This document shows positions 8,501-23,922 of a DNA stretch of 64,000 nt, one piece after another. Made by a program: the position numbers and the translations under genes. Location of the stretch: assembly GCA_947504045.1 (NCBI GenBank), contig CANNFY010000002.1, positions 1 through 64,000 of the forward strand, in the 5' to 3' direction. Position 1 is the first letter of the stretch, and each line of letters opens with the position of its first letter. The notes beneath the pieces were generated by a model. It did no database searches. It was not told the DNA's origin and saw only the letters and a list, made by a program, of their open reading frames with translations. The DNA is from an uncultured Maribacter sp. (GTDB taxonomy: Bacteria; Bacteroidota; Bacteroidia; Flavobacteriales; Flavobacteriaceae).

Positions 8501-11500
8501 ATCTGCTTCACTATAGCCAGCTGCCGGTGTATACAAAACCGTATCATCTGTTGGGTCTAATGGCGTACTATTATCATTTATAGAAACTGTTCCTCCATTT
8601 GTTGTTGAAGTACTTGGAAGTGTAATTGCACCAGTATTTGGGCCATCACCACCAAAATCATCAGGGCCATTTCCATTATTAGCCAGTACATCTATTGCGT
8701 TATTGCTAGAATCTTGTGCAATTGAAATAGCATCATCTTGTGCTGTTGGCAAACTATTTACACCAACGTTTACGGTTACCGTAGCAATGTCACAGTTTGT
8801 AGAGTTAGCGGCATCACAAATTTGATAGTTAACCGTGTATGAACCAGAACCAGTGTTACTAGCTACATCTACAGAACCATCACCATTTACCGTTAATGGT
8901 CCGTTTGAAGTCGGAGTTATAGTAACACTTGAAGGATTAAGTATAGCTCCATTGAATTCATCATTGTCAAATACATTTAAGACATCGTCTATTCCAGTAA
9001 ATCCTTCAACAGCAGTTATACCAGCTGAATCATCTATAGCATCCACATTATTTATAACCGTTAACGTTGCTTGTGCTTCTTCTGGACAAGAATTGTTTGC
9101 ACTACTGACTAAAACTTTATAGATATTCCCATCCATGATGAGGGTAACATCTGAAATGGTTAAACTAGAACCGGTGGCTCCTGAAATATCAGAAAAAGTA
9201 GATCCAGAATTGGTGCTTACCTGCCATTGGTACGTTGGGCTAGCATTTACATCGTAAGTTGGTGTTCCTGATGAATAAGCCGAAGCATCTAAAGCAGAAG
9301 CTGCTACTGTAAATGTAGCATCGTCACCAACTCGTTCTTCTTGGTCTGTTGGTGCTGTATCAATAGTTGTTTCTGATGCCGTTGTTACTCCGTTGGATGT
9401 ACCTGTATATGCCGTAGATGCACCAGTTACCTGACCATTTGCATCATATCCTGTACCATCTACTTCACCGTCATTATCATCATCTAAATGACCTGCTTCA
9501 ACTGTATCATAACAACCGTCGTTATCGCTATCGATATCTAAACTATCTATAACTCCATCATTGTCTGTATCGCAAATAAATGGGAGTAAAGAAAGATGAA
9601 TTGCATTTATCGCAGTACTTGTTGTGAAAAATCGTATATCTCTTGCAGGACCATCTGAAAGCCACCTCATTGCTGTAGCACCATTTCCTCCCGTATTGGT
9701 TACACTATATTCGTTTCCATTTTCATTTAACACATAAGGATCAGCTATAGTATATTGAAAGTCATAACCTACATTATCCAAGGCAACCATACCATCAGTT
9801 GTTCCGCCAACCATGCTATTGCCATGATGCGCATAAATAAATGTGGAATGGGTTCCTGTTACATGGAAGTCTGTATTCTCCTGGGTACCACTCATTACCA
9901 TAAATAGGTCTTGAGTAGGATGGGTAAGTCCATTTTTTACTTCTACAATGACACTTCCTGTTGGTAAAGAAAAATAAGAACTTACATCACCAATAGTATT
10001 TACTCCTGAAGTGTTTATAGGTACTCCTAGCATACTAGGAAGTATTCTAGTGTAATGACCATAAGTAGTAGATTGCGTAGGGATTGGGCATTCTACACTG
10101 TCTAAAATACCATCATTATCATCATCTTCATCACAGAAATCACCTATTAAATCACCATCACTATCTACGTAGGATGGGTGAGAAGGGTGACATTGGCTGC
10201 AAGTATCTGCTTGTTGAGTCTCATCAAGTGAAGTACCTCTATTTTGCGAGGATCCTCCTGGTATTCCAGTTGAGTTTATACTTGCCGTTAATCTTGATTC
10301 GGAATCAATATCAGAATATGTATAACTACCGTCACCTTCTAATGTATCTGGACAACCATCACCATCACTATCTGTATCTAAGTGATTTGGAATTCCGTCT
10401 TCATCAGTATCTAAGACTTCTAATAATAAATCTGAATTAGAAGGGGTTGTATATAAATCGTACGTACATGGGTCAAAATTCATGGAGAACAATCTATTTA
10501 CTCCCGAAGTAGGGTCTGCACCAATTTTTATTTTAAACGCACTTCTTAAAGCATATTTTGCAGTAAACATAACATTGGTTGCCGAAATATCTATACCAGG
10601 TTGTGTTTGTAAAGGACCATAAAATATCATTCCTAAACTACTTGGATAAATAGAAAGGTCACTTGGTGTTTCTACCGTTTGTGCAGAAGAGTTGGTAATG
10701 TCCAGTTCAACAAACTCTCTACCTTGTACACTATCGCCATCAACATCAATAGCTGTCATGTAAAATTGTGGTATTTGCGTTACTGTTGTTGTACCAGTCT
10801 CTACAAATTCAAAATCGAATTGAACGTCAGAGGCACTAGTTGCTAGAATAGGTTGAAAATTATCAATATTAGAAGCATCATCATCTATACTTGTAATTGC
10901 TGGATTTGGTGTAGATGAAACAATGGTAACTAATGCATCTACGCCTGTGGTAACGGTAGAAAACCTGTACACTGCACCAGAACTTAAGGCGGTACCAGAT
11001 TCTAAGGTTGCACCACTAAAGGATAATCCAGGGTAGTAGCTACACGTTTGTACTTGCATTTCGTCAGTATCTAAAATACCATCGTTGTCATCATCTAAGT
11101 CACAAAAATCACCAATAGTATCGCCATCTGTATCTGCAAATAATGGGTGTTCTGAATTACACTCACTACATTCATCTGCTTGTTGGTTATTGTTTTTAGC
11201 TGTTCCAATGCCTTGTGAAGTTCCTGAAGGAATTCCAAATGAATCAACTGTAGTAGTTAATTGAAGATTGTCATTTATATCTGAATAATCATAAGTGGCA
11301 TCACCTTCTAAAGCATCTGGACAACCATCATTATCACTGTCTGTATCTAAGTGGTCGGCAACAGAATCCAAATCTGTATCTGTAGCAGGACAAAGTCTAA
11401 AAATTACTACACTAGCATTATCTGTAGTAAAGAATTCTACGAAAGATGCATAACCTTCCGATTCCCAAGTCTCGGTACCTGCATTGTTATCTGCAGAGGA

Positions 11501-14500
11501 AGCATCACGTTCTACATAATATTCTGTGCCTTGGTTATAATGTGTAAATCCTGTATTAAGTGTACCTGTAAAGTTGAATTTTTCTCCATTAGAACGTATA
11601 CCTTCTCTACTGCCAATGGATGTTAAACCAGAACCATGGTCTATTCTAACTCTTGTTGGTATGGTACCAGAAATAGCTATGGAAGAAGCTGGATTAGAAC
11701 CAGATGTATTCCAAGAGGATGCTGTACTGTTTACATATGCATCTTTAAGTGTTAGAATTACAGAACCGTTACTTAAATTAAATAAGCTACTTACATCATG
11801 TACTGCACTAGAAATTACTTCATTTCCTGAATACCCTAAATCACTAGGTCTAACTACTGTATAACCCGAACATGTATCTTCATCGGTATCTAAAATACCA
11901 TCATTATCATCATCTAAATCACAGAAATCTCCAATGTTATCTCCATCACTATCTACGTAGGACGGGTGTGATGAATCACATGGGTCACAAGCCACTGCTT
12001 GAACAGCATCATCTGTAGAGGAACCTGCACCTTGAGAAGTACCTCCTGGAACACCAACTGCATCAACAGTTGCAACTAATCTTGATTCGGAATCAATATC
12101 AGAATATGTATAACTACCATCACCTTCTAAGGCATCTGGACAACCATCATTATCACTATCTATATCAAGACAATCGGCGATACCATCACCATCTGTATCT
12201 GTAGTTGTTACTCTAGGAAATTCTCCAATTTCCATTCTATACTGTTGTGTACTTGGGGTAATGTTATCATCCCAATCAAAACGGTAGGAGGTAGTACCAT
12301 AACTTTCTGCTAATATAGCACTAGAACCTCCAGAAGCCGTAGCCTCAATTTGAGCGGTACCAGAACCATCATCGGTTGTTGCCACGGCATTGGCTGGTGT
12401 GCCAGATGTTACGTAATGCATTTGACTGTCGGAGACATAAGTTTCAATTTCTCCAGAACTAAACGCAACGCCAGCGGTGGCTTCTCTTCTAATATCTACA
12501 GGTTTTGAGAACTCTAGTAAGAATCCTGCATGTCCGCCCAATACACTACCTGAAGCAGCACCCATATAGAGTCTGGCATCATCAGGTTCATCTGAAAATG
12601 ATGTTATAGTTACCGTTATGCCTGCTAAATTAGGACTTAGGGCAGCTAAATCGTACGTGCCAATTAATCCCCATTCATTATCTCCGCTACTTCTACCAGA
12701 CCAATAAGCTGAGCCAATTAAAGTGTTGAAGGTGAAATCTATCCAACTTACAGAAGTGTCCTGTACATTAATGGCAGGAGTTGGTATTGCTGGGCATTCA
12801 TCTACATCTAAAATACCATCATTATCATCATCTTCGTCACAATCATCAAAAACCCCATCATTATCAGAATCTACTGTACCACACGACACTGTAGAACCAT
12901 CGTCTCTATAATCAACTTCGGGCGTAGTACTGTTCTGTATATTTGGTAAGGTTGTAGGATCGTCAATAGTTCCGTTTGGATCTGAGTATCCTGTTGTAGC
13001 GTCGGTACTATCGTCTAAACCGTCATTATCTGTATCAGCATTGGCTAATGTCAATCCTGCTTCTACGGTATCATCTTCACTCTCATTATCACTATCTACA
13101 TCTATATAATCTGGAGTATCTGTACCATCGGTGTTTTCTGGGGTTATGCCACCTAAATAGGCGCTATTTACCCCTTTGTTAGTTTCGTAGGTTGCTGCGT
13201 CATCTGCATTTTGAGGCACATAACCAGCTGTAGTCTGTGCTTCAATATTATCTGGGATACCATCACCATCACTATCTAAATCTAGATAATCTGAAATACC
13301 GTCTGGGGTGGTTTCAGAATCTAAAATGGTATAGTTTACGGTTCCTGCATCTTCATTACCGCCACCTTGTACAGCGTCTGGAACACCATCAAGACCTACA
13401 TCTCCTGTAACTTCGCCGTTAGAGTGTGCTGCATTATGGCCAGCTTCAACGGCATCATAAATACCATCGTTATCGGAGTCTAGATCAAAATAATTTGGTA
13501 CTCCGTCCTCATCGGTATCACATGCTAATGCATGAGAAAAGGAAACATCATCGAACCTTGTAAAACTTGTGCCATTCTGGTTATTATAGATATAGAATCT
13601 GAAGTAATATGTTGTTCCTGCCGATAAGAAATCATTGGAACTTATATTATAAGACAGATAATTACCTGCCAGCATGTTATCAATATGAAAATCTTGAGCT
13701 TTTACGGTAGGATTACTAAAGCTTGCATTAGTATCCATTTCTATGGCCATATCAAAATTACCATAATCGACCTCAGGACCGCTAGGGCTGGTGTAAAAGC
13801 CAATATTGATACTTGTAGCCCATAAACCTACTGCGGGTGTGTAGGAAACTTGCACATAATGACCTGCTGATTTTGCTGTAGCAAAAGTACTTTGGTCTGC
13901 ATTATCATACACATACGTATATAGGTTGCCAATTTCATTTAAAGAACCAAAAGAAATATTAGGTGCCGCAGTAAAATTAGGACTGCTGATTAAAGTTCTA
14001 TTATCGAAAGTAGCATAATCCGATTCTCCTGGATCGGTTGTTCCTACAGTACTGGCATTTGGCGTTTCGCTATCATTATGAAACCATTCTACTTGTGTTT
14101 GTGCACATAAGGAAAGTTCTTCGGCATCTAAAATACCATCATTATCATCATCTAAATCATCTACATCAAGTACTAAATCACCATCATTATCTGGACCAGC
14201 CGGACCACCACAAGCGCTAGAGTTAGAAGCATCTGTTACTGCTGAATTTGTACCAGTGTACCCATCACTACCTTCTACTACACCATAAGAAGAATAGCCT
14301 GTGCCATCTACTTCACCGTCTTCTGTAGCATCAGTAAAACCTGCCTCTTTAGCATCTGTACAGCCATCTCCATCAGAATCTTGATTTAAGAAATCTGGTG
14401 TTCCTGGAGTTGTTTCAATAGGGTTTAAAGCAGTACCAGAACAGTCCGTAGTTGTTGTAGCATCTACTTCTATACCAAAAATTTGTACGTCTGCCCAATA

Positions 14501-16705
14501 GGTAGTTACCCTAAAATACTGTGTGTCTGTATTGGTTGTGGCATTATAGGCTGTAACTGTACTTCCGTTAACATTATAATTTAATATTTCTCCCCCTATT
14601 GCATTACCCGAAGCGTCTGATTGATGTATTTGTCCACCTTGACTACCACCAGTAGCATGTGCCATGTAAACTGTAATTACAGAACCAGATGGAATTACTG
14701 TTCCCATGTTTAATAGTAACTGTGCTCCATTACTTGAAACCGCGGCATCCGTATCTGATAAGCCTGTAGCTCCTATTGCTCCTGAGGTATTAGAGAAATT
14801 TCCTGAGTTTATAGTTGCATTAGTTGCATTTACCGTTCCTCCACCAGTACTAACACAACTACTATCATAAATATCGGCCAAACCATCATTATCTAAATCC
14901 TCTACATTGTCTACTAATCCATCGTTATTAGCATCTGTACCACCCGCTTCTACAATATCATAAATACCATCGTTATCAGAATCTAAATCTTCAGAATTTG
15001 GTATTCCGTCACCATCAAAATCGCAAGGGATACCACCGCCAGATAATAGGGTAGGTATTAACGAAATATCATCTAGAGCAATATCATTACCACAACCACC
15101 TGTGTTATTATTTATAAGGGCAACTTCTACATTTGTAGAGGAGCCTGTGTTAAATTCAAAATTGTAATTTTGCCAATCGCCAGTTCTTGGAATATCGCCA
15201 GTATCAAAAGAAGCGATTAATTGACCAGAATTATCTATGTCTCTAATTTCATATCTTACATTAGGTAGTATATACCCATCTGGTTCTGATTCACAAAAAG
15301 TTTGATTTGCTTGACTATTAACATTTACTAACCAAGCGGAGAATTTATAGGTTGTATTTGGGTCTAAAGTAACTGTTCTATTATAAAAATCGCCAATTGC
15401 ATAACTTGCATTTACCACCATCATATAGCCAGAACCATTGGTATGATCACCAAGATTTGCTTGCCAACTACCTTCGGGCTCATTAGCAAGAGTTGCTATT
15501 GTATAGTCGCCATCATTTAAAGCATTAGGAAAATTTGCATAAGGAGCAATATTTCCTCTATAATTGTAAGTAGTATAACCTGCAGGAAGTTCTGCTCCTG
15601 GGTAAGATCCTGTATCAAAGTCTTCATAAAAAACAGAGCAATCTTTATTTTCTACATCATCTGGTATACCATCATTATCATCATCAACATCAACCTCATT
15701 TGTTAAATTATCTCCATCTATATTACCAGAGCTAGAAGCCATTGTCCAGGGTGAAAATTGACTTACATTTGAAACCGTTACCGAATTATTACTATAACTA
15801 GAACTATTTACTCCTTTGTTTTCCCATTGGTTTGTTCCGGTATTATACCTGTATGTAGATAGGTTACTTTCGCCAGTGGTTGGTATATCATTGTTAGTGT
15901 ATGAAAATTTAATATTAGCAGCACCTGTTCCAGTTTTATCTAATTGCCAAAACCTGTTTAAAGCACTGGATGCAATGCTTTGGTTAGACTCGTCTAACAT
16001 ATTTGTAACATTTTCTGGCTGCGTTGGGTATGGCAATAAATCTAATCCGGTTGGATAGGTAGATACTGTTATTTGTCCTAAGTCGCCACTTGCCCTTTCT
16101 ATAGTTAGTGGAATTTTATCTCCAGTAGTTGTTCCGAATGGTATTGTATAAGCACCTCCTGTTGGGGAAGTTTCCCATAAAACCTTACTTTGGTTTAAAA
16201 CATCTTCGCTTATAATATAGCCTTCATTAGTAATAAGAGAGCCAATTAAAGAGTTGGTTATTTGTAAGGTGTTGGAATTTAGATTTAAGGCAACATCATT
16301 TAAATTTAGGATACCTAAATTAGTGCCTGAAACAGAACCGCCAACAATAGTATTTACTTCTAATGTAGCTTCATTAATATCTAAAACTAAATTATAAAAT
16401 AGGGTGGTGGTGGTACCTCCAATAGTTGTTATGTCGGTTGATTTTGTTAGTGTTACCACTCCTTCAGAATCTGTTGTAAAAATGGTACTTGTAGTGTTAT
16501 TGTTTATCCAATTACCATCTACACTAATAGCAGCTTCATTTTTTATTTCGGCATCTCCTGTTATTTGTAAATTACCTTGGTCTACACGAATAGTAGCTCC
16601 GGGTGTTACAGAAAGATTTGCTCCAAAAACATTTAAACCATCTTGTGCATAAATGCCAAGAATGTTTATAATAAATAGTAAGCCAAATATTATTTTGGAT
16701 TTCAT
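2591..16705 (-). CDS. Giant multidomain adhesin with TSP3 repeats, Ig-like array and type-B sorting domain (4,704 aa)
   Basis: Predicted cell-surface or secreted adhesin exported by the type IX secretion system. Signal peptide at 1-20 (MKSKIIFGLLFIINILGIYA). Residues about 21-330 form a beta-helix-like head. From about 335 to 2,450, Asp-rich TSP3-type calcium repeats (DSDNDGIPD, DDDNDGILD style) alternate with seven beta-rich inserts of 130-200 residues, each entered through a Cys after a TSP3 run. After an Ig/PKD-like stretch and two cadherin-like modules come 17 Ig-like repeats (about 2,758-4,485) of two kinds. One is about 99 residues with the DDIINATEDDSPVTI motif, the other about 105 residues with DDITADNILNATEAAADV. 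More TSP3 repeats follow, then a C-terminal gliding-type sorting domain (about 4,615-4,704: VEIYNRWGVKVFE, LPAGVYFYIIKY). The ORF is intact despite highly similar internal DNA repeats. The ligand is unknown. Confidence 0.95.
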   Translation of the reverse strand: MKSKIIFGLLFIINILGIYAQDGLNVFGANLSVTPGATIRVDQGNLQITGDAEIKNEAAISVDGNWINNNTTSTIFTTDSEGVVTLTKSTDITTIGGTTTTLFYNLVLDINEATLEVNTIVGGSVSGTNLGILNLNDVALNLNSNTLQITNSLIGSLITNEGYIISEDVLNQSKVLWETSPTGGAYTIPFGTTTGDKIPLTIERASGDLGQITVSTYPTGLDLLPYPTQPENVTNMLDESNQSIASSALNRFWQLDKTGTGAANIKFSYTNNDIPTTGESNLSTYRYNTGTNQWENKGVNSSSYSNNSVTVSNVSQFSPWTMASSSGNIDGDNLTNEVDVDDDNDGIPDDVENKDCSVFYEDFDTGSYPGAELPAGYTTYNYRGNIAPYANFPNALNDGDYTIATLANEPEGSWQANLGDHTNGSGYMMVVNASYAIGDFYNRTVTLDPNTTYKFSAWLVNVNSQANQTFCESEPDGYILPNVRYEIRDIDNSGQLIASFDTGDIPRTGDWQNYNFEFNTGSSTNVEVALINNNTGGCGNDIALDDISLIPTLLSGGGIPCDFDGDGIPNSEDLDSDNDGIYDIVEAGGTDANNDGLVDNVEDLDNDGLADIYDSSCVSTGGGTVNATNATINSGNFSNTSGAIGATGLSDTDAAVSSNGAQLLLNMGTVIPSGSVITVYMAHATGGSQGGQIHQSDASGNAIGGEILNYNVNGSTVTAYNATTNTDTQYFRVTTYWADVQIFGIEVDATTTTDCSGTALNPIETTPGTPDFLNQDSDGDGCTDAKEAGFTDATEDGEVDGTGYSSYGVVEGSDGYTGTNSAVTDASNSSACGGPAGPDNDGDLVLDVDDLDDDNDGILDAEELSLCAQTQVEWFHNDSETPNASTVGTTDPGESDYATFDNRTLISSPNFTAAPNISFGSLNEIGNLYTYVYDNADQSTFATAKSAGHYVQVSYTPAVGLWATSINIGFYTSPSGPEVDYGNFDMAIEMDTNASFSNPTVKAQDFHIDNMLAGNYLSYNISSNDFLSAGTTYYFRFYIYNNQNGTSFTRFDDVSFSHALACDTDEDGVPNYFDLDSDNDGIYDAVEAGHNAAHSNGEVTGDVGLDGVPDAVQGGGNEDAGTVNYTILDSETTPDGISDYLDLDSDGDGIPDNIEAQTTAGYVPQNADDAATYETNKGVNSAYLGGITPENTDGTDTPDYIDVDSDNESEDDTVEAGLTLANADTDNDGLDDSTDATTGYSDPNGTIDDPTTLPNIQNSTTPEVDYRDDGSTVSCGTVDSDNDGVFDDCDEDDDNDGILDVDECPAIPTPAINVQDTSVSWIDFTFNTLIGSAYWSGRSSGDNEWGLIGTYDLAALSPNLAGITVTITSFSDEPDDARLYMGAASGSVLGGHAGFLLEFSKPVDIRREATAGVAFSSGEIETYVSDSQMHYVTSGTPANAVATTDDGSGTAQIEATASGGSSAILAESYGTTSYRFDWDDNITPSTQQYRMEIGEFPRVTTTDTDGDGIADCLDIDSDNDGCPDALEGDGSYTYSDIDSESRLVATVDAVGVPGGTSQGAGSSTDDAVQAVACDPCDSSHPSYVDSDGDNIGDFCDLDDDNDGILDTDEDTCSGYTVVRPSDLGYSGNEVISSAVHDVSSLFNLSNGSVILTLKDAYVNSTASSWNTSGSNPASSIAISGTIPTRVRIDHGSGLTSIGSREGIRSNGEKFNFTGTLNTGFTHYNQGTEYYVERDASSADNNAGTETWESEGYASFVEFFTTDNASVVIFRLCPATDTDLDSVADHLDTDSDNDGCPDALEGDATYDYSDINDNLQLTTTVDSFGIPSGTSQGIGTAKNNNQQADECSECNSEHPLFADTDGDTIGDFCDLDDDNDGILDTDEMQVQTCSYYPGLSFSGATLESGTALSSGAVYRFSTVTTGVDALVTIVSSTPNPAITSIDDDASNIDNFQPILATSASDVQFDFEFVETGTTTVTQIPQFYMTAIDVDGDSVQGREFVELDITNSSAQTVETPSDLSIYPSSLGMIFYGPLQTQPGIDISATNVMFTAKYALRSAFKIKIGADPTSGVNRLFSMNFDPCTYDLYTTPSNSDLLLEVLDTDEDGIPNHLDTDSDGDGCPDTLEGDGSYTYSDIDSESRLTASINSTGIPGGSSQNRGTSLDETQQADTCSQCHPSHPSYVDSDGDLIGDFCDEDDDNDGILDSVECPIPTQSTTYGHYTRILPSMLGVPINTSGVNTIGDVSSYFSLPTGSVIVEVKNGLTHPTQDLFMVMSGTQENTDFHVTGTHSTFIYAHHGNSMVGGTTDGMVALDNVGYDFQYTIADPYVLNENGNEYSVTNTGGNGATAMRWLSDGPARDIRFFTTSTAINAIHLSLLPFICDTDNDGVIDSLDIDSDNDGCYDTVEAGHLDDDNDGEVDGTGYDANGQVTGASTAYTGTSNGVTTASETTIDTAPTDQEERVGDDATFTVAASALDASAYSSGTPTYDVNASPTYQWQVSTNSGSTFSDISGATGSSLTISDVTLIMDGNIYKVLVSSANNSCPEEAQATLTVINNVDAIDDSAGITAVEGFTGIDDVLNVFDNDEFNGAILNPSSVTITPTSNGPLTVNGDGSVDVASNTGSGSYTVNYQICDAANSTNCDIATVTVNVGVNSLPTAQDDAISIAQDSSNNAIDVLANNGNGPDDFGGDGPNTGAITLPSTSTTNGGTVSINDNSTPLDPTDDTVLYTPAAGYSEADSFTYTITDANNDSDTATVNVTVVPTPTITINVVAVDDIINATEDDSPVTIFGTTTNVENGQTVTVTLNGQTYTTTVSGNTWTLDIPAIDAQALDATETITADVNNSLGTSAVQATRDIQHDATPPSITLNIDDITADNILNATEAAADVAVTGNVTGDFNTGDTVTLTVDGTDYTGTVDALGDYSIDVPGSKLAADPNTTVDGSVTTTDTAGNSATATDTQVYTVDTVAPAITLNIDDITADNILNATEAAADVTVTGTVSGDFNTGDTITLTVDGTDYTGTVDALGAYSIDVPGSKLAADPDTTIDGSVTTIDTAGNSATATDIQVYSVDTVAPAITLNIDDITADNILNATEAAADVAVTGNVTGDFNTGDTVTLTVDGTDYTGTVDALGAYSIDVPGSKLAADPDTTVDGSITTTDTAGNSGTATDTQVYSVDATAPTIAINVVALDDIINATEDDSPVTISGTTTNVEDNQEVTVVLNGTTYSPVVTGNTWTFDITALEAQALDANETITADVSDVAGNSATQTTRDIQHDVTSPTIAINVVAVDDIINATEDNSPVTISGTTTNVEDNQEVTVVLNGTTYSPVVTGNTWTFDITALEAQALDANETITADVDDVAGNSATQATRDIQHDVTTPTITINVVALDDIINATEDDSPVTISGTTTNVEDNQEVTVVLNGTTYSPVVTGNTWTFDITALEAQALDANETITADVDDVAGNSATQATRDIQHDVTTPTITINVVALDDIINATEDDSPVTISGTTTNVEDNQEVTVVLNGTTYSPVVTGNTWTFDITALEAQALDTNETITADVSDVAGNSATQATRDIQHDATPPSITLNIDDITADNILNAAEAAADVTVTGNVTGNFITGDSVTLTVDGTDYTGTVDAAGDYNIDVPGSKLAADPDTTVDGSITTTDTAGNSATTTDSQVYSVDATAPAIAINVVALDDIINATEDDSPVTINGTTINVEDGQTVTVILNGETYTTSVSSNSWTLDIPALDAQALPANATITADVSDLGGNPATQATRDIQHDATPPSIILNIDDITADNILNATEAAADVAVTGTVSGDFNTGDTVTLTVDGTDYTGTVDAAGDYSIDVPGSKLAADPDTTVDGSVTTTDTAGNSATATDTQVYSVDATAPTIAINVVALDDIINATEDDSPVTISGTTTNVEDNQVATVVLNGTTYSPVVTGNTWTFDITATEAQALDANETITADVSDVAGNSATQATRDIQHDVTTPTITINVVAVDDIINATEDDSPVTISGTTTNVEDNQAATVVLNGTTYSPVVTGNTWTFDITALEAQALDANETITADVSDVAGNSATQATRDIQHDVTTPTIAINVVALDDIINATEDDSPVTISGTTTNVEDNQEATVVLNGTTYSPVVTGNTWTFDITALEAQALDANETITADVSDVAGNSATQATRDIQHITTLPVPVLAIDDITADNILNATEAAADVTVTGTVSGDFNTGDTVTLTVDGTDYTGTVDVLGAYSILVPGSKLAADPDTTVDGSVTTTHTAGNETTATETKSYTVNLTDPVPVLQINDITADNIINAAESGNPINVTGTVSGDFNTGDMVTLTVNGVDYTGVVDASGIFSIPVPGTELAADSDVTVDASISTTNINGNTGSASETKLYTVDITNPIAILIIDDITADNILSAEEEGTNIPVTGTVSGEFSPGDIVTITINDIEYTVALDATGNFSISILGSELAIDTDTTVEGSLTTTDNAGNNATITNTKPYGIAIMDNDPDNDGLTNNEEVALGTDPNNPDSDEDGINDGQEVEDATNPLEDCDSIGGAPLATSDCDSDGLTTLEEDELGTDPENPDSDADGILDGQEVTDKTNPLDSCDSIGGTPPTGTACDIEIENDLISSEINEGAFRIRFIEQFPTNTVEIYNRWGVKVFETKGYNNNSNVFKGKSNGRATIKANENLPAGVYFYIIKYIKNNNGKSKSGYLYINN
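4187..5075 (-). repeat. Three consecutive near-identical 297-bp type A units
   Basis: The block containing the wording attatcttccacattggt recurs at about 4367, 4664 and 4961, exactly 297 bp apart. Differences between copies are mostly synonymous or affect one variable residue pair (DNQVA, DNQAA, DNQEA). Confidence 0.9.
6001..7188 (-). repeat. Four consecutive near-identical 297-bp type A units
   Basis: Period 297 bp across about 6001-7188. The two central copies (around 6185-6480 and 6482-6780) are virtually identical over their whole length, suggesting recent duplication or gene conversion. Confidence 0.9.
7190..8135 (-). repeat. Three consecutive near-identical 315-bp type B units
   Basis: Period 315 bp (for example the start of the same segment at about 7392 and 7707). 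Each encodes one 105-residue module with TGDTVTLTVDGTDYTGTVDA. Confidence 0.88.
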
Positions 16706-17851: not shown

Positions 17852-18601
17852 ATGCAATTATCTTATTTGAAAAAAAGTAGTAGAGTTTTTGTGCTGCTTT
17901 TTTTTAGTCTAGTATTTTTAGTTAAAATCTATGCTCAAGAAAAACAAGAATTTAAAAATTCAAAAGTATCTGGTTACATAGATTTTAATGGGTATTATGA
18001 CACAAGAGAATTTAGCGTTTTTACCTATAATATTTTGGCAAATTTGCCTAAACGGTTTCAGTATTTTTCTTTAACAAACTATGAGAGTTCTAATAGCTCT
18101 TCGGGTTTGTCTAAAAATTATGCGGAGCACAACTTACGTTGGGGTATAGGAGAAGCTATACCTTTAGATCTAACATTACAATATGTATTGCGTAATGGCG
18201 AAAATAATAACGATGTTCGATTGGGTTTTAGGTGGAAGGTTAACCAAACAAAAGGAATACAGAAAATGTTTAATAAATTAAATATGTCTTATTCTTTAAA
18301 TCCAATGTTATTACAATTTAGATTACATAATAAGACTACATATATGACACAAATAGAACACGTTTATTCTATTTTATTGTTGCCTAAAATATGTAATAAA
18401 AGACTTTATTTAGGAGGTTTTGCAGACCAAAATTTTATTTATAATAATGGAGGAGTTTCTTTTAAATGGGTATCTGAACACCAATTAGGGTATAGAATAT
18501 TAAATAGATTATATGTTGTTTTAGAATATAGAATTAATGATTATTACCAAAACGATACGTATGGATTAGGTTACGGTTTGGAATATAAAATTTCATTTTA
18601 A
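17852..18601 (+). CDS. Predicted outer-membrane beta-barrel protein (249 aa)
   Basis: A signal peptide (residues 1-28, ending KIYAQ) is followed by alternating aromatic/polar strands such as YFSLTNYESS, LGFRWKVNQ and LYVVLEYRIND. The last residue is Phe (GLEYKISF), as in many outer-membrane barrels. I do not recognise a named family, so the barrel call is inferred from composition and the C-terminus. It starts the operon and lies 11 bp before a periplasmic-binding lipoprotein gene. An outer-membrane channel beside a ligand-binding lipoprotein and a kinase suggests a role in letting a ligand in or in sensing, but this is inference. Confidence 0.65.
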   Translation: MQLSYLKKSSRVFVLLFFSLVFLVKIYAQEKQEFKNSKVSGYIDFNGYYDTREFSVFTYNILANLPKRFQYFSLTNYESSNSSSGLSKNYAEHNLRWGIGEAIPLDLTLQYVLRNGENNNDVRLGFRWKVNQTKGIQKMFNKLNMSYSLNPMLLQFRLHNKTTYMTQIEHVYSILLLPKICNKRLYLGGFADQNFIYNNGGVSFKWVSEHQLGYRILNRLYVVLEYRINDYYQNDTYGLGYGLEYKISF

Positions 18602-18612
18602 TAAAAAGGGTA

Positions 18613-19779
18613 ATGTTTATACAAAATAAAAAAAATAGTGTAGTGCTAAAAATTATAGAAAGATGCTTTTTGCTTTTTATATGTGTTTTATTATGTACTT
18701 CTTGCAGTTCAGATGTTAATGAAGTTAATATTGGGTATATAGGTCCATTATCTAAAAGAGCAACAGATTTAGGCGTTGCTCCTGCAAATGCATTAAAATT
18801 AGCAATAGAGCAATATAATTCCAACAGAAAAAAAGGAGAGCCAAAAGTTAATTTATTTATAGAAGATGACCAATGGGAAAAAGATAATGCCATGCCTGCG
18901 TATGAAAAACTACGAAAGGAACATGATATAAAAATTGTGTTTATAAGTAATAGTGACGGTACAATAGCAATAAGTGATAAAGTATTAGAAGACGAAGTAA
19001 TTTTAGTTAACCCTCTTAATAATGATGCGTTACTATCCTCTTTAAATAAAAATACATTTAAAATAGCAAAATCTACAGAAGATGCAAACTCTCTTATTGC
19101 AATTAGAATAATAGAGTTAGGTTTTAAAAAAGTTGTTATTATGAACTACCCTAATGATTTTATGACAATAGCTAGTAACAGTTGCAAAAAATTATTAGAT
19201 GAAAGTGGTATTGAAAACAAAATTGTTACTATAAATAAAAATACTGTAGACTTTAGTGAAGAGCTAAAATCTTATAAAGAAGAAGGTTACGATGCGTATG
19301 TTTTTTTTGGATATAAAAATTTTGGTTTTGCAATGAAACAAGCTAGAGATTTAGGTATAACGGCTCCTTTTTATGGATCTACAGTTTTATTAGTGCCAGA
19401 ATATTATGAAAATTCTGAAGGAACTATTAAAGGAACCGAATGTACTTTTTTTACCCCTTCAGACGGTAATTGGGTATTGGCAAATGAATTTTTAGATACT
19501 TATGCTAAAACTTATAAAGAAAAACCATTTTCTGTTTGGCCGCCTTTACAAGCGTATGATGCTATAAATTTGGTGTTAAATGAACTTAAAACAATAAATA
19601 CTACAAAAACCAGTCAAGAAAAATTTGATGCTTGGTTGCGCAATAGGTTGTTAAATGTAGATTTTTTTCAAGGTACTTGCGGAAATATTTCAATAGGAGA
19701 AAATGGAGCCTCTAAAGGAATTTATTTTTCTTTATATACCTATAAAAGTAAAGGAGAATTAATAAAAGTTAAGAGATAA
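18613..19779 (+). CDS. Type I periplasmic-binding lipoprotein (LIV-binding-like, 388 aa)
   Basis: Lipoprotein signal with lipidation Cys at residue 31 (LLCTSC). Residues about 37-370 match the Leu/Ile/Val-binding type I solute-binding fold (Peripla_BP_6): VNIGYIGPLS at the start, NALKLAIEQYN in the first helix, EDDQWEKDNAM, and a hinge region around FKIAKSTEDAN. In the family these proteins deliver amino acids or similar ligands to an ABC permease or act as receptor modules. No permease or ATPase gene is nearby; instead a histidine kinase begins 11 bp downstream. The parsimonious inference is a ligand-sensing role with that kinase. The ligand cannot be told from the sequence. Confidence 0.85.
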   Translation: MFIQNKKNSVVLKIIERCFLLFICVLLCTSCSSDVNEVNIGYIGPLSKRATDLGVAPANALKLAIEQYNSNRKKGEPKVNLFIEDDQWEKDNAMPAYEKLRKEHDIKIVFISNSDGTIAISDKVLEDEVILVNPLNNDALLSSLNKNTFKIAKSTEDANSLIAIRIIELGFKKVVIMNYPNDFMTIASNSCKKLLDESGIENKIVTINKNTVDFSEELKSYKEEGYDAYVFFGYKNFGFAMKQARDLGITAPFYGSTVLLVPEYYENSEGTIKGTECTFFTPSDGNWVLANEFLDTYAKTYKEKPFSVWPPLQAYDAINLVLNELKTINTTKTSQEKFDAWLRNRLLNVDFFQGTCGNISIGENGASKGIYFSLYTYKSKGELIKVKR

Positions 19780-19790
19780 AACAGATCTAA

Positions 19791-21299
19791 ATGACCAAGA
19801 TAGGAACTAAATTATTGGTAGGTTTTGGAATATTTATTTGCATTTTATTACTACACACAATAGTTGGGCAGTTAGCAACAAAACAAGCTGTACAAAGCCA
19901 TGATACGCTTACCAAAAAAACAGGGCCGGCAGTAAGGCTGCTTAGTGCTATTAGAATGGAAAATAAAGAGCTTTTTTTACTTGTAGAAAATAGAATTTTA
20001 GATGGTAAAAATAGAGAAACTTTAAATAGGGTTAAGCAAATTGTAGAAGTAGATTTTCCGTATTACATTTCTAATTTAGTTAGTCTAAAAAAATCTTTAC
20101 AGGCATCAGACTCAAGAGCTGAAAATATAGATAGTATAGCTATGTATGCTTCAAAATCTATTGCTTTAATTAAACAAGTAAACTCTTCATTATTAACCTC
20201 AAAAGATTATGAAGATAAAGTAAAAATGGAAATGATTTTAGATATACAAAAAAATGAACTTTCTGTATTTTCTAAAGAAATAGACAATAGATTATCTTTT
20301 TTACAAATACAGTATAATAAAGAGTTAGTTACTAATATATCTAATTTATCAAATACTCTAGATAGTAATTCTCGCTTTTTCTTATGGGCGAGTATATTCT
20401 TTATTTTCTTTGGTCTTTTAATTACCTATAAAAATATTATATCTATAGTTAGGCCAATTAAAGAGTTGTTACATAACGTAAATAGTATTAAAACAGGAAA
20501 TTACCAAAATAGAATAGAGGTTAAAGGAAAAGATGAACTTTCTATGTTAGGAAGAGAGTTTAACAAAATGTCAGATTCATTACACGAAAGTTTTGAAAAA
20601 ATAAAACTTAAAAATAAAGAGTTAGAACAATTTGTGTATATAGCCTCACATGATCTACAAGAGCCTTTAAGAACCGTTAATAGTTTTACCGATTTGTTAA
20701 CTAAAGAATATAAAGACACCTTTGATGATAAAGCACTAACCTGTATAAATTTTATATCGCAAGCATCAACAAGAATGAGTTTACTTATTAGAGGCTTGCT
20801 GGACCATAGCTGTATAGGAGGAAACAAAGAACTCTCTAAAGTTAATTGTAATGATATGGTGAAGAGCTTAGAAGTAGATCTTTCAACTTTAATTTCTGAA
20901 AATAAAGCTCAATTGGATATAGGTACTCTGCCAGAAGTTGAAGTATACCAAACAGAGTTTAGGTTACTTTTTCAAAACCTAATTAATAATGCTATAAAAT
21001 TTAGAAAACCTAACCTTGCTCCAGTAGTAAAAATTAAAGCAAAAGAGTATAGTAATTTTTGGAAATTTATTATTTCAGATAATGGTATTGGTATACCTAA
21101 GAATAAAAAAGATAAAATTTTTGGAATGTTTTGCAGGCTTAATTCTGATAAAGATTTTGAGGGTACTGGTATTGGACTTGCGCATTGTTTAAAAATTATT
21201 GAATTGCATAATGGATCTATTAAAGTAGATTCTGAAATAAATAAAGGAAGTACTTTTTCAATAAAAATATCTAAAAATTTACATAAACAGATAGCTTAG
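19791..21299 (+). CDS. Membrane sensor histidine kinase (502 aa)
   Basis: Transmembrane segments at about 8-28 and 196-215 enclose a helical periplasmic domain of about 165 residues (four-helix-bundle/CHASE3-like). A HAMP domain follows (about 217-272), then HisKA with phospho-accepting His287 in YIASHDLQEPLR, and HATPase_c with N box NLINNAIKF, G1 DNGIGIP and G2 GTGIGLA. There is no receiver domain. It is the last gene of the operon with the barrel and the binding lipoprotein. The phosphoryl group should pass to a receiver. The nearest LytTR regulator lacks the acceptor Asp, while a stand-alone receiver at 23497 has it. The class is certain; the partners are inferred. Confidence 0.93.
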   Translation: MTKIGTKLLVGFGIFICILLLHTIVGQLATKQAVQSHDTLTKKTGPAVRLLSAIRMENKELFLLVENRILDGKNRETLNRVKQIVEVDFPYYISNLVSLKKSLQASDSRAENIDSIAMYASKSIALIKQVNSSLLTSKDYEDKVKMEMILDIQKNELSVFSKEIDNRLSFLQIQYNKELVTNISNLSNTLDSNSRFFLWASIFFIFFGLLITYKNIISIVRPIKELLHNVNSIKTGNYQNRIEVKGKDELSMLGREFNKMSDSLHESFEKIKLKNKELEQFVYIASHDLQEPLRTVNSFTDLLTKEYKDTFDDKALTCINFISQASTRMSLLIRGLLDHSCIGGNKELSKVNCNDMVKSLEVDLSTLISENKAQLDIGTLPEVEVYQTEFRLLFQNLINNAIKFRKPNLAPVVKIKAKEYSNFWKFIISDNGIGIPKNKKDKIFGMFCRLNSDKDFEGTGIGLAHCLKIIELHNGSIKVDSEINKGSTFSIKISKNLHKQIA

Positions 21300-21321
21300 T
21301 TATTTAGATTATTACTGCTAT

Positions 21322-21350
21322 TTACAACGTTTTTGGTATTATTCACAACA
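21322..21350. promoter_or_regulatory. Direct repeats spaced 21 bp upstream of the Hpt-LytTR pair
   Basis: On the minus strand ATGTTGTGAAT and ACGTTGTAAAT are 21 bp apart (plus strand TTTACAAC and TTCACAAC). The GTTGTrAAT core resembles the repeats at 17594-17630, and the spacing fits two helical turns. It lies in the 150-bp gap after the kinase gene. Chance occurrence in such AT-rich DNA is possible. Confidence 0.4.
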
Positions 21351-21506
21351 TAAAATTTATAAAATACAATAGATAATAAATTGACAAGTTGTAGTATTAT
21401 ATATAATTTTTATAAGAATTTTATTACAAAAATTATTTAATACTTAAAAATGAGTAAACGTAAATATATAGGTTATAACAACCTTTATTTACACAAATTT
21501 TATAAG

Positions 21507-21827
21507 ATGATAGATACTCCCAACCTTAGTTACATAAACCAACTTTCCAACGGAAATAAAACTTTTAAAGAGCATCTTTTAAATATTATAAAAAAAGAAC
21601 TACCGCAAGAAATAGAAACGTACCATTCTTGCCTTAAAGTAGATAATTATACAGAAACAGCAGAATGTGTACATAAAATAAACCATAAGTTTAAAATTTT
21701 AGGTTTAGAAAAAGGTCATAAAGTAGCAGAGGATTATAGATTAAATTTACTAAATAAGAGTAAAATTTTAAAGGTAGATTTTGAAAATATATTAAATGTA
21801 TTATTGTTATTTATAAAAACAGCTTAA
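21507..21827 (+). CDS. Hpt (histidine phosphotransfer) domain protein
   Basis: Small helical protein whose core ECVHKINHKFKILGLEKG matches the Hpt signature, with the candidate phospho-His in VHKINHK. The usual Lys-Gly after the His is replaced by Asn-His. I place the start at the ATG at 21507 (MIDTPNLSYINQLSNG), where flavobacterial relatives begin; an in-frame ATG at 21450 would add 19 residues. The stop is 2 bp before the LytTR regulator gene, so the two are co-transcribed. Hpt proteins shuttle phosphoryl groups between receiver domains, which makes it a link between the kinase at 19791 and receivers encoded nearby. Confidence 0.8.
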   Translation: MIDTPNLSYINQLSNGNKTFKEHLLNIIKKELPQEIETYHSCLKVDNYTETAECVHKINHKFKILGLEKGHKVAEDYRLNLLNKSKILKVDFENILNVLLLFIKTA

Positions 21828-21829
21828 AA

Positions 21830-22555
21830 ATGAACTGTATTATAATTGATGATGAAGAAACGTCTAGAGAAATAATTTTATACCTAGCAAAAAACAATCC
21901 TAATATTAATGTATTAGAAACATTTAGTAATGCAACTTCAGGTATTAAATATTTAAATGATTCTCCAGTAGATCTTATTTTTTTAAATGTAAGTATGCCA
22001 ATGTTTAATGGTTTTGATTTTATAAAAACAATTAAAAATCCGCCAAATATAATATTAAGTTCTTTAGATAAAAGTTTTGCAATTGATGCCTTTGAGTACA
22101 AATGTGTTGTAGATTATTTAGCAAAACCAATTACCCAAGAACGTTTTAATAAAGGAGTAGAAAAAGCATTATCCATACACAAAGAAGTTATACCACCAAC
22201 TTTAGAAAATAAAAAAAAAGAAGAGTCTTTTTCTGAAGATTCTAAAGATGATCTTTATGTAAGTATAGATCGTAGACTTGTTAAAATTGATATTCCAAGT
22301 ATAAATATAATAGAAGCAAAAGGAGATTATATTTTTTTAAAAACTTCCAGTAAAAATTTTATGGTTCACTCTACCTTAAAAAAAATTAAAGATAAATTAC
22401 CACAAGACTATTTTTTTAAAGTGCATAGATCTTATGTAATAAATACAAAAAAAATTATTGATATAGAAGATAGTAGTGTGCTTATAGAAAGAGATGTAAT
22501 TCCGGTCAGCCGTTCTCATAGAAAAGAATTATTACGTAGATTAAATCTATTATAA
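21830..22555 (+). CDS. LytTR response regulator with Asn at the phospho-acceptor site (241 aa)
   Basis: Receiver domain at about 1-118, linker to about 135, LytTR DNA-binding domain at about 138-240 (SINIIEAKGDYIFLKT, FKVHRSYVINTKKI). The acidic pocket Asp7-Asp8 and the Lys of LAKPIT are present, but the acceptor site reads FLNVSMPMFNG, so residue 53 is Asn (codon AAT) where the family has Asp. Phosphorylation at the normal site is therefore not expected. The protein may be constitutively in one state or be controlled by binding. LytTR proteins bind paired direct repeats 21-22 bp apart, and such repeats occur at 17594 and 21322. A terminator follows. Confidence 0.92.
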   Translation: MNCIIIDDEETSREIILYLAKNNPNINVLETFSNATSGIKYLNDSPVDLIFLNVSMPMFNGFDFIKTIKNPPNIILSSLDKSFAIDAFEYKCVVDYLAKPITQERFNKGVEKALSIHKEVIPPTLENKKKEESFSEDSKDDLYVSIDRRLVKIDIPSINIIEAKGDYIFLKTSSKNFMVHSTLKKIKDKLPQDYFFKVHRSYVINTKKIIDIEDSSVLIERDVIPVSRSHRKELLRRLNLL

Positions 22556-22587
22556 TTTTATGTAATAATGTATTTAAATATATAGTA

Positions 22588-22613
22588 AAACCGAGTGCTA
22601 ACTCGGTTTTTTT
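22588..22613 (+). terminator. Terminator after the LytTR regulator gene
   Basis: AAACCGAGT and ACTCGGTTT form a strong stem with a 4-nt loop followed by a run of T. It is 33 bp past the regulator stop codon and separates the Hpt-LytTR pair from the small-protein cluster. Confidence 0.85.
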
Positions 22614-22687
22614 ATACATCAAAGTTAGATGTTGTAAATTATATATGTAGGTAAATTCCCACTAATCTACATTAACTTACCATTCAC

Positions 22688-22709
22688 CGAAAAAGAATGT
22701 CTTTTGACG
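22688..22709. promoter_or_regulatory. Imperfect inverted repeat upstream of the small-protein cluster
   Basis: CGAAAAAGA (22688-22696) and TCTTTTGACG (22700-22709) are imperfect inverted copies separated by a few bases, 49 bp before the first tiny ORF. It could be an operator; no known regulator consensus is recognised. A GTTGTAAAT half-site lies nearby at 22631-22639. Confidence 0.35.
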
Positions 22710-22757
22710 AGTGTTCCTCTTAAATTTACAGTATAAATAACCCCAAACCTTTTAGTT

Positions 22758-22838
22758 ATGAAAAATTTAAAAATAATTAATTCAGTAACCACATTATTAA
22801 CAACTTTATGTTTAACTGCTTTATCATTTATGATTTAA
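22758..22838 (+). CDS. Tiny hydrophobic peptide (26 aa)
   Basis: ATG to TAA encodes MKNLKIINSVTTLLTTLCLT followed by ALSFMI. A short basic start followed by one hydrophobic stretch is what a single-pass membrane peptide or a cleavable leader looks like. It is the first of four tiny ORFs between the LytTR regulator and a stand-alone receiver, 31 bp before the next. No family recognised; coding status rests on position and composition only. Confidence 0.45.
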   Translation: MKNLKIINSVTTLLTTLCLTALSFMI

Positions 22839-22869
22839 ATTAAAAAATAACCTTTAAAAAACCCTACTT

Positions 22870-23043
22870 ATGAATAATCGAATAACATTAGTAAAAGAGA
22901 TATATAATGATGGCTTTAAGAACTTAGGCAATCATTTTGTTAAAAGCTATTTTAAAGCATTTGCTTGGTTCGGATTCTCTATGTATGCAATAGTTGTATT
23001 TGCATTTATTTTCAGAATATCTACAGGCTTTCAATTTTCATAA
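22870..23043 (+). CDS. Small single-pass membrane protein, KAFAWFGFSMYA family (57 aa)
   Basis: The N-terminal half is polar and amphipathic (MNNRITLVKEIYNDGFKNLG). The C-terminal half is a transmembrane-like segment, KAFAWFGFSMYAIVVFAFIF, followed by a conserved tail RISTGFQFS. The gene is 28 bp before a clear paralogue with which it shares most of residues 26-57. Nucleotide changes between the copies are concentrated at third positions and conservative codons, which supports real coding. No characterised family is recognised. The neighbourhood (Hpt, LytTR regulator, receiver) suggests the peptides are regulated by, or feed into, the signalling locus. Confidence 0.75.
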   Translation: MNNRITLVKEIYNDGFKNLGNHFVKSYFKAFAWFGFSMYAIVVFAFIFRISTGFQFS

Positions 23044-23071
23044 AAAATAATTTAATAATACTTACATATAA

Positions 23072-23242
23072 ATGAAGAGATTAAAATTAGTTAAAAAAAC
23101 CTATAAAAAGTGCTTTAAAATTTTAGGAGACCTTTTTGTTGAAAAATATTTTAAAGCATTTGCTTGGTTTGGCTTCTCTATGTATGCAGTAGTAGTATTT
23201 GTATTTGTGTTTAGAGTTTCTGCCGGTTTTCAATTTTCTTAA
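23072..23242 (+). CDS. Small single-pass membrane protein, paralogue of the preceding gene (56 aa)
   Basis: Starts MKRLKLVKKTYKKCFKILGD and continues into the membrane segment KAFAWFGFSMYAVVVFVFVF and tail RVSAGFQFS. Compared with the preceding gene, the block YFKAFAWFGFSMYA is identical and the rest of the membrane helix and tail is conservatively substituted, while the N-terminal part is diverged and more basic. This points to tandem duplication followed by selection on the membrane helix and C-terminus. The tail's position relative to the membrane cannot be read with confidence. Function unknown. Confidence 0.75.
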   Translation: MKRLKLVKKTYKKCFKILGDLFVEKYFKAFAWFGFSMYAVVVFVFVFRVSAGFQFS

Positions 23243-23313
23243 AAATTAAATAAAAAGTAGTATTCAAGTAAAAAATACCTGTATAAAAATATATAACCCT
23301 AAAATGTGAAATT

Positions 23314-23430
23314 ATGATAACTTCAAAAAAAAGTAAATATCTAAAAATGTTTAATAGCCTAAATAAAATAAACGCAAAAGGTTACGTAAAAGCTTTTGTA
23401 TGGTTAGGTTTATCTGCATTATTATATTAG
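23314..23430 (+). CDS. Truncated or minimal relative of the small membrane proteins (38 aa)
   Basis: Encodes a basic N-terminus (MITSKKSKYLKMFNSLNK) followed by GYVKAFVWLGLSALLY, which aligns with the YFKAFAWFGFSMY block of the two upstream proteins but stops inside the would-be membrane helix. It may be a shortened paralogue or a decaying copy. It lies 66 bp before the receiver gene. No independent evidence of translation. Confidence 0.5.
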   Translation: MITSKKSKYLKMFNSLNKINAKGYVKAFVWLGLSALLY

Positions 23431-23496
23431 AATAAAATGTTTTATTTTTAATATATAAAAAGGATAATTTAACAATAATTAATAATATATAATTTT

Positions 23497-23922
23497 ATGA
23501 AAGAAAAATTTAGTTGTGTATTACTGGTAGATGATGACGACGCAACAAATTATATACACCAACATGTTATTGACGAAGCAAATTTTACAGAGCATGTTGT
23601 TGTAACCAAAAATGGAAAAGAGGCATTAGATTTTTTAAAATCAGACACAAAAGACGATTTTAAAAAACCGGATATAATTTTTCTAGATATAAACATGCCA
23701 GTTATGAACGGGTGGGAATTTCTAGAAGAGTATAAAGAATTAGAAACAGAACTAAAAAACCAAATAATAATAGTTATGTTATCTACATCTTATAATCCTG
23801 CCGATAAAATAAATTCAGAAGCTACAGGCCTTGTAGAGCGTTATATAACTAAACCTTTAACTTTAGAGGCGCTTAACGAGTTGAAAATTGCATACTTGGC
23901 ACCTAAAGTAAAATTAAGATGA
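23497..23922 (+). CDS. Stand-alone receiver domain protein (CheY-like, 141 aa)
   Basis: A single REC domain with acidic residues VDDDDATN at 11-18, acceptor Asp64 in IIFLDINMPVMNGWEF, a Ser/Thr at the switch position (MLSTSYN) and the conserved Lys in ITKPLT. There is no output domain. This is the common flavobacterial single-domain receiver type that pairs with kinases lacking their own receiver. Given the receiverless kinase at 19791, the Hpt at 21507 and the acceptor-less LytTR regulator, it is the best local candidate for the phospho-acceptor that completes a relay. That pairing is inferred from neighbourhood only. Confidence 0.9.
   Translation: MKEKFSCVLLVDDDDATNYIHQHVIDEANFTEHVVVTKNGKEALDFLKSDTKDDFKKPDIIFLDINMPVMNGWEFLEEYKELETELKNQIIIVMLSTSYNPADKINSEATGLVERYITKPLTLEALNELKIAYLAPKVKLR

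What the first reader, a model, noticed from the sequence alone, without database searches (positions are those of the whole stretch)
17852..23922. A compact signalling locus: barrel, binding lipoprotein, receiverless kinase, Hpt, acceptor-less LytTR regulator, tiny membrane proteins, stand-alone receiver
Nine ORFs in a row make up what looks like a self-contained sensor system: possible ligand entry (barrel), ligand binding (lipoprotein without permease), kinase, Hpt, transcription factor and a cluster of small membrane proteins as likely outputs. LytTR regulators that control small membrane or secreted peptides are known in Gram-positive quorum systems, but I know of no described Bacteroidetes system with this full composition.
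Basis: partly seen in the sequence, partly recalled or inferred. Interest (0 to 1): 0.85.

Follow-up and report, generated by a model that had tools for sequence, protein, structure and literature searches.

The report
Binding-protein sensor relay with small-membrane-protein operon
A marine bacterium carries a sensor system that seems to switch on a tiny operon of unknown small membrane proteins through a DNA switch shared with related bacteria, although its gene regulator has lost the amino acid normally needed to receive the signal.

Summary
In detail: the nine ORFs are present, plus an overlooked 26-aa ORF. Comparison splits the locus into two modules: a sensor core (barrel, binding lipoprotein, kinase, usually a receiver; 16 distinct loci found, 12 without the rest) and an output module (Hpt, LytTR, micro-ORF, DUF6747 genes, receiver). 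They adjoin in the window, Maribacter vaceletii, Arenibacter and Kriegella; a fifth contig has the output module behind the kinase and is cut there. Yet a 110-bp promoter element is conserved without gaps ahead of the small genes in all five genomes. Its strongest internal repeat, CCATTCATC-N12-CCATCCATC, has the spacing published for LytTR sites, and in held-out relatives the element clusters around the orthologous Hpt-LytTR locus, there behind H-NOX or FIST/NosP kinases. Best reading: a captured Hpt-LytTR pair with its operator drives the small-protein operon for the binding-protein kinase. In three of the five genomes the LytTR acceptor Asp is Asn and the kinase-adjacent receiver is gone, while the receiver domain stays under purifying selection. 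No binding or expression was tested.

The parts
17852..18601 (+). Outer-membrane 12-stranded beta-barrel, first gene of the sensor module
   Evidence: AF2 model and PDB fold matches KdgM/NanC/Tsx/PcoB; intact barrel upstream of PBP in 11 of 15 loci where it could be seen
18613..19779 (+). Peripla_BP_6 lipoprotein, probable ligand-binding co-receptor
   Evidence: Pfam 84 bits; four orthologues 57-78% identical; lipobox-like LLCTSC read from the sequence
19791..21299 (+). Membrane histidine kinase (HAMP-HisKA-HATPase), no receiver
   Evidence: Pfam; follows PBP in 15 of 15 assessable PBP loci
21507..21827 (+). Hpt phosphotransfer protein, His kept (ORF open from 21450, start judged 21507)
   Evidence: 47% identical to a relative's Hpt; alignment; sub-threshold PF01627 hit of that relative
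21830..22555 (+). REC-LytTR regulator with acceptor Asp replaced by Asn
   Evidence: Pfam, alignment, tree and acceptor table, dN/dS
22587..22613 (+). Hairpin plus T run: probable transcription terminator after LytTR
   Evidence: Sequence; the scan lists the hairpin on the - strand only, 2 terminator-like sites found against 1.5 expected, so weak alone; different hairpins with T runs at the same place in M. vaceletii and Arenibacter, read from the sequences
22643..22752 (+). Conserved 110-bp promoter/operator element with two 9-bp direct repeats 21 bp apart
   Evidence: Ungapped alignment of 7 copies; searches; repeat geometry
22758..22838 (+). 26-aa hydrophobic micro-ORF, first ORF after the element
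   Evidence: Six counterparts of 24-39 aa in the other four genomes; the two Kriegella copies differ at codon positions 1/2/3 by 7/3/16
22870..23043 (+). DUF6747 small membrane protein, copy 1
   Evidence: PF20532 85.9 bits; dN .05, dS .98 against M. vaceletii
23072..23242 (+). DUF6747 small membrane protein, copy 2
   Evidence: PF20532 61.5 bits
23314..23430 (+). 38-aa ORF, perhaps a short DUF6747-like piece
   Evidence: No Pfam match; its 39-aa counterpart in M. vaceletii is similar to DUF6747 by BLAST; DNA alignment
23497..23922 (+). Stand-alone receiver (REC2), acceptor Asp present
   Evidence: Pfam; groups with Arenibacter REC2, 100/98

Best explanation
A binding-protein-coupled sensor kinase has been joined to an Hpt-LytTR output pair related to the Flavobacteriaceae Hpt-LytTR pair that elsewhere sits behind H-NOX and FIST/NosP kinases. 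Proposed path: a small ligand crosses the barrel, is bound by the lipoprotein, and the complex contacts the kinase sensor region; the kinase phosphorylates a receiver, which exchanges phosphate with Hpt; LytTR binds the direct repeats in 22643-22752 and turns on the micro-ORF-DUF6747-DUF6747-38aa-REC2 operon, whose last gene feeds back on the relay. Shown by sequence: the modules, the residues, the element and its repeats, and the element's association with this LytTR group. Inferred: ligand entry, PBP-kinase contact, the phosphotransfer order, LytTR binding, direction of regulation, feedback. In the window lineage the final Asp is Asn and the kinase-adjacent receiver is gone, so the last step is inferred to depend on contact with Hpt or REC2, or on LytTR abundance, not on its phosphorylation.
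For: PBP is followed by the kinase in 15 of 15 assessable loci, 11 of these then by a receiver. The five Hpt-LytTR copies of this arrangement form one clade, 100/99; 5 of 5 have DUF6747 and the element. Element: matches above 70 bits only at this locus in each of 5 genomes, including a third Kriegella copy that was not in the model. Best internal repeat of 3570 compared pairs has offset 21, that is 9-12-9; LytTR sites of 9 bp separated by 12 bp are reported in PMC6193735 (passages seen). Four held-out genomes: 11 of 18 element matches lie within 20 kb of the orthologous LytTR (against the places). Three genomes picked beforehand as lacking the orthologue, G118, G011, G100: 0, 0 and 1 weak match. 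Purifying selection on both LytTR domains (dN/dS about .15 and .12 against M. vaceletii, dS near 1).
Against: No experiment. The LytTR acceptor is missing, so a phosphorelay to the regulator cannot run in the usual way. DUF6747 is mostly not linked to LytTR, and the three other DUF6747 genes of this genome lack the element. The element was found in loci already chosen, and the association test counts related genomes. G044, whose best LytTR match is far below the orthologue level (E 6.2e-39), still has a weak element match (E 4.1e-5). This genome's own H-NOX/FIST locus has only weak matches (L056:12273-12368, E .025; C1:286690, E .0022). With only the 7 first copies the 21-bp offset was not the best one. 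In one search only 150 of the first-look candidates were scored per genome. Hpt is called by homology to a sub-threshold Pfam match and its fold model was poor.
Confidence: 0.55

Rival explanations
1. The relay and the regulator have come apart: the kinase signals through REC2 and Hpt to other partners, and the Asn-bearing LytTR is a constitutive activator or repressor of the small-protein operon that no longer follows the ligand.
For: Among the five genomes, Asp to Asn in window, M. vaceletii and G154 coincides with absence of the kinase-adjacent receiver; Arenibacter and Kriegella keep both.
Against: The receiver domain of LytTR and the Hpt are still under purifying selection and remain adjacent. 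The three Asn copies may share one ancestor (81/71), so the coincidence may be one event.
Confidence: 0.25
2. LRS-like control: the DUF6747 or micro-ORF membrane proteins hold or release LytTR at the membrane, so that the operon is a feedback antagonist of its own activator, as membrane proteins do for LytTR regulators in Streptococcus mutans (antagonism partly recalled).
For: Regulator without acceptor next to small membrane proteins under a LytTR-type promoter; LytTR regulator and membrane protein pairs are described in PMC6193735 (passages).
Against: Most DUF6747 loci have no LytTR nearby (87 of 91); Arenibacter and Kriegella have the same genes with an intact acceptor; no strong element match stands before the LytTR operon itself.
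Confidence: 0.12
3. Accidental neighbourhood: independent genes that happen to adjoin.
For: Core without module 2 in 12 of 16 PBP loci; DUF6747 mostly elsewhere.
Against: Modules adjoin in 4 genomes in two orientations (divergent in Kriegella) and module 2 is intact behind the kinase in a fifth; shared element.
Confidence: 0.05

Closest known systems
PBP-dependent kinases TorT/TorS and LuxP/LuxQ (recalled; papers only listed, not read)
   Same: Periplasmic binding protein paired with a membrane kinase; phosphorelay with Hpt
   Different: Here the PBP is a Peripla_BP_6 lipoprotein with a barrel; kinase is not hybrid; Hpt and receivers are separate genes; output is LytTR
H-NOX and FIST/NosP kinase phosphorelays
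   Same: Related Hpt-LytTR pair and related operator in Flavobacteriaceae
   Different: No H-NOX or FIST gene at this locus; sensor is PBP-kinase; LytTR acceptor lost
LytTR response regulators (AgrA, ComE, AlgR, BtsR type; recalled)
   Same: REC-LytTR domain order; 9-12-9 direct repeats upstream of the target gene
   Different: Acceptor Asn; targets are DUF6747 and a micro-ORF
LytTR Regulatory Systems HdrRM/BrsRM (PMC6193735, passages)
   Same: LytTR regulator beside membrane proteins; no phosphorylation of the regulator expected in the window lineage
   Different: Has a receiver domain, Hpt and kinase; repeats precede the small-protein operon, not the regulator operon
DUF6747 (PF20532)
   Same: Two genes are members over cut-off
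   Different: In this genome only the copies at this locus carry the element; other copies sit beside other genes

Membership tests
LytTR-type response regulator | Receiver plus LytTR DNA-binding domain | tested here: met
LytTR-type response regulator | Phosphoacceptor Asp | tested here: not met
   Asn in window, M. vaceletii, G154; Asp in the other 18 of 21 rows
LytTR-type response regulator | Binds 9-bp direct repeats separated by 11-13 bp | tested here: inconclusive
   Element with this geometry present and associated with the LytTR group; binding not tested
LytTR Regulatory System (LRS) | LytTR direct repeats before the regulator's own operon | tested here: not met
   The only strong match in this genome is before the small-protein operon
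LytTR Regulatory System (LRS) | Membrane protein antagonises the regulator | not testable with these tools
   Needs interaction or deletion data
PBP-coupled histidine kinase | PBP gene conserved next to the kinase, no permease | tested here: met
   Kinase follows in 15 of 15 assessable loci; no permease seen on reading the window ORFs
PBP-coupled histidine kinase | Physical PBP-kinase contact | not tested
   No complex was modelled
H-NOX/NosP phosphorelay | H-NOX or FIST gene with the kinase | tested here: not met
   None among the locus proteins; H-NOX at 13 and FIST at 10 of 16 related loci read
Hpt protein (PF01627) | Pfam match over cut-off and four-helix fold | tested here: inconclusive
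   No match for the window protein, sub-threshold for the relative, all-helical low-confidence model, His conserved
DUF6747 | PF20532 over cut-off | tested here: met
   two ORFs
ABC importer binding protein | Adjacent permease and ATPase | tested here: not met
   None seen on reading ORFs of 14-28 kb; not every ORF was scanned

The most novel reading that the evidence does not exclude
A full His-Asp phosphorelay lost its last phosphotransfer step but kept the regulator: the Asn receiver of LytTR is read out by binding Hpt or REC2, or LytTR is held by the DUF6747/micro-ORF membrane proteins that it induces, making a hybrid between a two-component relay and an LRS.
Probability: 0.25. Interest if true: 0.85.

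Novelty: new variant of a known kind. Interest (0 to 1): 0.62.

Why it matters
It gives a predicted operator, regulator and target operon for DUF6747, a family for which no paper was found here, and a natural before/after series (Asp in Arenibacter and Kriegella, Asn in the Maribacter-type loci) for how a phosphorelay regulator survives loss of its acceptor. It also gives a testable operator for the Hpt-LytTR relay that stands behind H-NOX and FIST/NosP kinases in Flavobacteriaceae.

Tried and rejected
A common LytTR site ahead of all DUF6747 copies: an EM motif search on 52 non-redundant upstream regions found motifs scoring above one shuffled set (for example 175 against 87 at width 24) but none of LytTR-box form shared by all; the longest looked like the conserved promoter of one subtype. 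A by-eye motif ACCRTTYRTCC, up to 1 mismatch, matched 8 of 64 (Markov mean 1.0) but was chosen from the same data, so it was dropped.

Recent in-genome duplication of this genome's own Hpt-LytTR pair: rejected, the window LytTR is 51% identical to it but 60-65% to copies of other genera, and the tree puts it apart.

Rfam: no match at the gathering threshold in 16.5-25 kb. PDB sequence search with the Hpt profile: none at E 1. Hpt fold: too poor to use. The first alignment of the element had misplaced coordinates, replaced. The first repeat analysis on 7 copies ranked offset 31 highest and 21 lower; 21 became best with 23 copies. My notebook speaks of five genera sharing the element; what the calls bear out is five genomes in at least three genera (Maribacter, Arenibacter, Kriegella, and unnamed G154).

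Full report
OBSERVATION. Pfam names the lipoprotein (Peripla_BP_6), the kinase (HAMP, HisKA, HATPase_c), the REC-LytTR regulator, two DUF6747 proteins and the final receiver. The barrel has no family, but eight orthologues gave an AlphaFold2 model with 12 strands (pLDDT 78) whose matches among solved folds are outer-membrane channels and barrels such as PcoB, KdgM and NanC. The Hpt is called by homology only. A 26-aa ORF at 22758-22838 was missed.

TWO MODULES. The binding protein is rare: 5 of 198 and 10 of 397 (overlapping set) whole genomes, both counting this one; a pattern-based scan of genome contigs gave 12 loci, one cut off within the gene (L106). Matching contig lengths identify G004 with Maribacter vaceletii, G136 with Kriegella aquimaris, G118 with Gillisia lutea, G100 with Bizionia paragorgiae, G089 with L098 and G307 with Kriegella sp. 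EG-1. Together these are 16 distinct loci. In 15 of 15 where the next gene is visible it is the kinase; in 11 of these a single receiver follows. The four exceptions are the window and M. vaceletii (Hpt follows) and G307 and G479 (no receiver seen). An intact barrel precedes in 11 of 15 loci where it could be seen; G332 has a remnant-like piece and three have none. Hpt-LytTR-DUF6747 adjoins the core in 4 of 16 loci: window, M. vaceletii, Arenibacter hampyeongensis, and K. aquimaris, where it is divergent. A fifth, G154, has HK-Hpt-LytTR-DUF6747-REC on a contig that begins 283 bp before HK, so its binding protein is not seen. Other core loci have different Hpt and receiver genes beside them (L098, L103, L114).

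DUF6747. 36 of 296 genomes have it, this one included, often several copies. I read 91 loci, which hold all the above-cut-off places listed; some are cut by contig ends. By home-made profiles (E 1e-6) 7 have HK, REC or LytTR within 5 kb and 4 have LytTR. Three of this genome's five copies lie elsewhere: two behind PorP/SprF and OmpA genes, one behind an M48 protease gene.

ORIGIN OF HPT-LYTTR. At 16 related Hpt-LytTR loci that I read, H-NOX is found at 13 and FIST (NosP-type) at 10 of those 13; three (L065, L067, L069) show neither in the stretch held (Pfam on examples: HNOB 5.5e-39, FIST 5e-41). In a 21-row tree the five copies of the present arrangement are one clade (100/99), next to G107's copy (87/86), apart from this genome's own H-NOX/FIST-locus copy. 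The acceptor is Asn in window, M. vaceletii and G154 and Asp in the other 18. The window receiver groups with Arenibacter's second receiver (100/98); G154's receiver is unplaced and Kriegella's second receiver is a long branch, perhaps unrelated (bootstrap not settled). Among the five genomes the kinase-adjacent receiver is missing in exactly the three Asn ones. Because those three may share one ancestor (81/71), this may be one event. The LytTR receiver half shows dN .155 against dS 1.04 with M. vaceletii, the DNA-binding half .128 against 1.10.

THE ELEMENT. Upstream of the small genes the five genomes share an ungapped 110-bp block (7 copies). As a sequence-only profile it matches above 70 bits only at this locus: G000 1, G004 2, G136 3, G154 1, Arenibacter 1; the third Kriegella copy is new. 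G154 has a further weaker match (28 bits, C16). Each of the three Kriegella DUF6747 genes has its own copy. In 296 relatives it gave 14 weaker matches outside these loci, in 12 genomes (E 1e-7 to 8e-5). 8 of the 14 lie within 20 kb of the related LytTR (places); 10 of the 14 stand directly before an ORF of 60 aa or more on the same strand. A profile of 23 copies has its best internal repeat at offset 21 (CCATTCATC-N12-CCATCCATC; score 4.46, mean -8.0, sd 3.8, 3570 pairs). The published LytTR repeats are 9 bp with a 12-bp, less often 11- or 13-bp, spacer (PMC6193735, passages seen). In four genomes with no copy in the profile, 11 of 18 matches are within 20 kb of LytTR (G075 5 of 6, G098 4 of 5, G107 1 of 5, G001 1 of 2). 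Of 17 match loci read, 14 have a same-strand ORF at or just after the match. The same kinds recur across genomes: a group 1 glycosyltransferase, a polysaccharide exporter, STAS proteins and the H-NOX operon, and in G107 the glycosyltransferase and exporter lie far from LytTR, so position alone does not explain the matches. G118 and G011 had none and G100 one weak match (E .0048); their best LytTR E-values were 2.8e-38, none, and 6.5e-39, where the related copies score 3e-61 or better. Against this, G044 (best 6.2e-39) does have a weak match.

MECHANISM. Shown: composition, residues, conservation, element geometry and association. Inferred: ligand entry, co-receptor contact, phosphotransfer, LytTR binding and sign of control. 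In Arenibacter and Kriegella the receiver, Hpt and LytTR residues for HK to REC to Hpt to LytTR are present as far as aligned; in the window the last is not, so regulator control must be non-covalent, concentration-based, or lost.

LITERATURE. DUF6747: no paper in the held library. LytTR with H-NOX: 2 papers listed, neither read. LytTR with Hpt in Bacteroidetes or Flavobacteria: listings only. Absence from print is claimed only for these searches.

VERDICT. A real, conserved, rewired sensor-regulator-target unit; new variant of known kinds.

Noticed in passing
G075, G098, G107, G051, G083, G001, G039, G154 (loci L191, L205, L212-L215, L225-L246): The same operator profile precedes a group 1 glycosyltransferase, a polysaccharide exporter, STAS-domain genes and the H-NOX operon (Pfam on examples): a candidate regulon of the H-NOX/NosP-kinase-Hpt-LytTR relay in Flavobacteriaceae.
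   Followed up: partly
L052:2835-4337: M. vaceletii has a second copy of the kinase upstream of the barrel (62.6% identical to the window kinase).
   Followed up: no
2591-16705: 4704-aa protein with CHU_C type IX secretion signal and repeated Ig-like and TSP3 segments.
   Followed up: no
L006:7398-8053; L007:6231-6398: DUF6747 genes recur at the same positions in several relatives: behind PorP/SprF-OmpA genes near pgk, and between an M48 protease gene and a phosphoglycerate mutase-like gene (pgk and mutase named by reading).
   Followed up: partly
L106: Contig labelled Bifidobacterium breve MAG carries the barrel and part of the binding protein: probably a misbinned Bacteroidota contig.
   Followed up: no
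L053:6187-6912, L114:6464-7199, L103:6092-7205: Other core loci carry different Hpt and receiver genes beside them (Hpt-REC fusion or separate genes), as if the core repeatedly recruits relay partners.
   Followed up: partly
G000:C3:174387-174457 (L241): Weak operator match 32 bp before a 227-aa ORF without Pfam match; a similar gene follows matches in G001, G006 and G044, although G044 lacks a close LytTR relative.
   Followed up: no
L209: Three near-identical tandem copies of the operator-like sequence downstream of a transposase-like ORF in G078.
   Followed up: no
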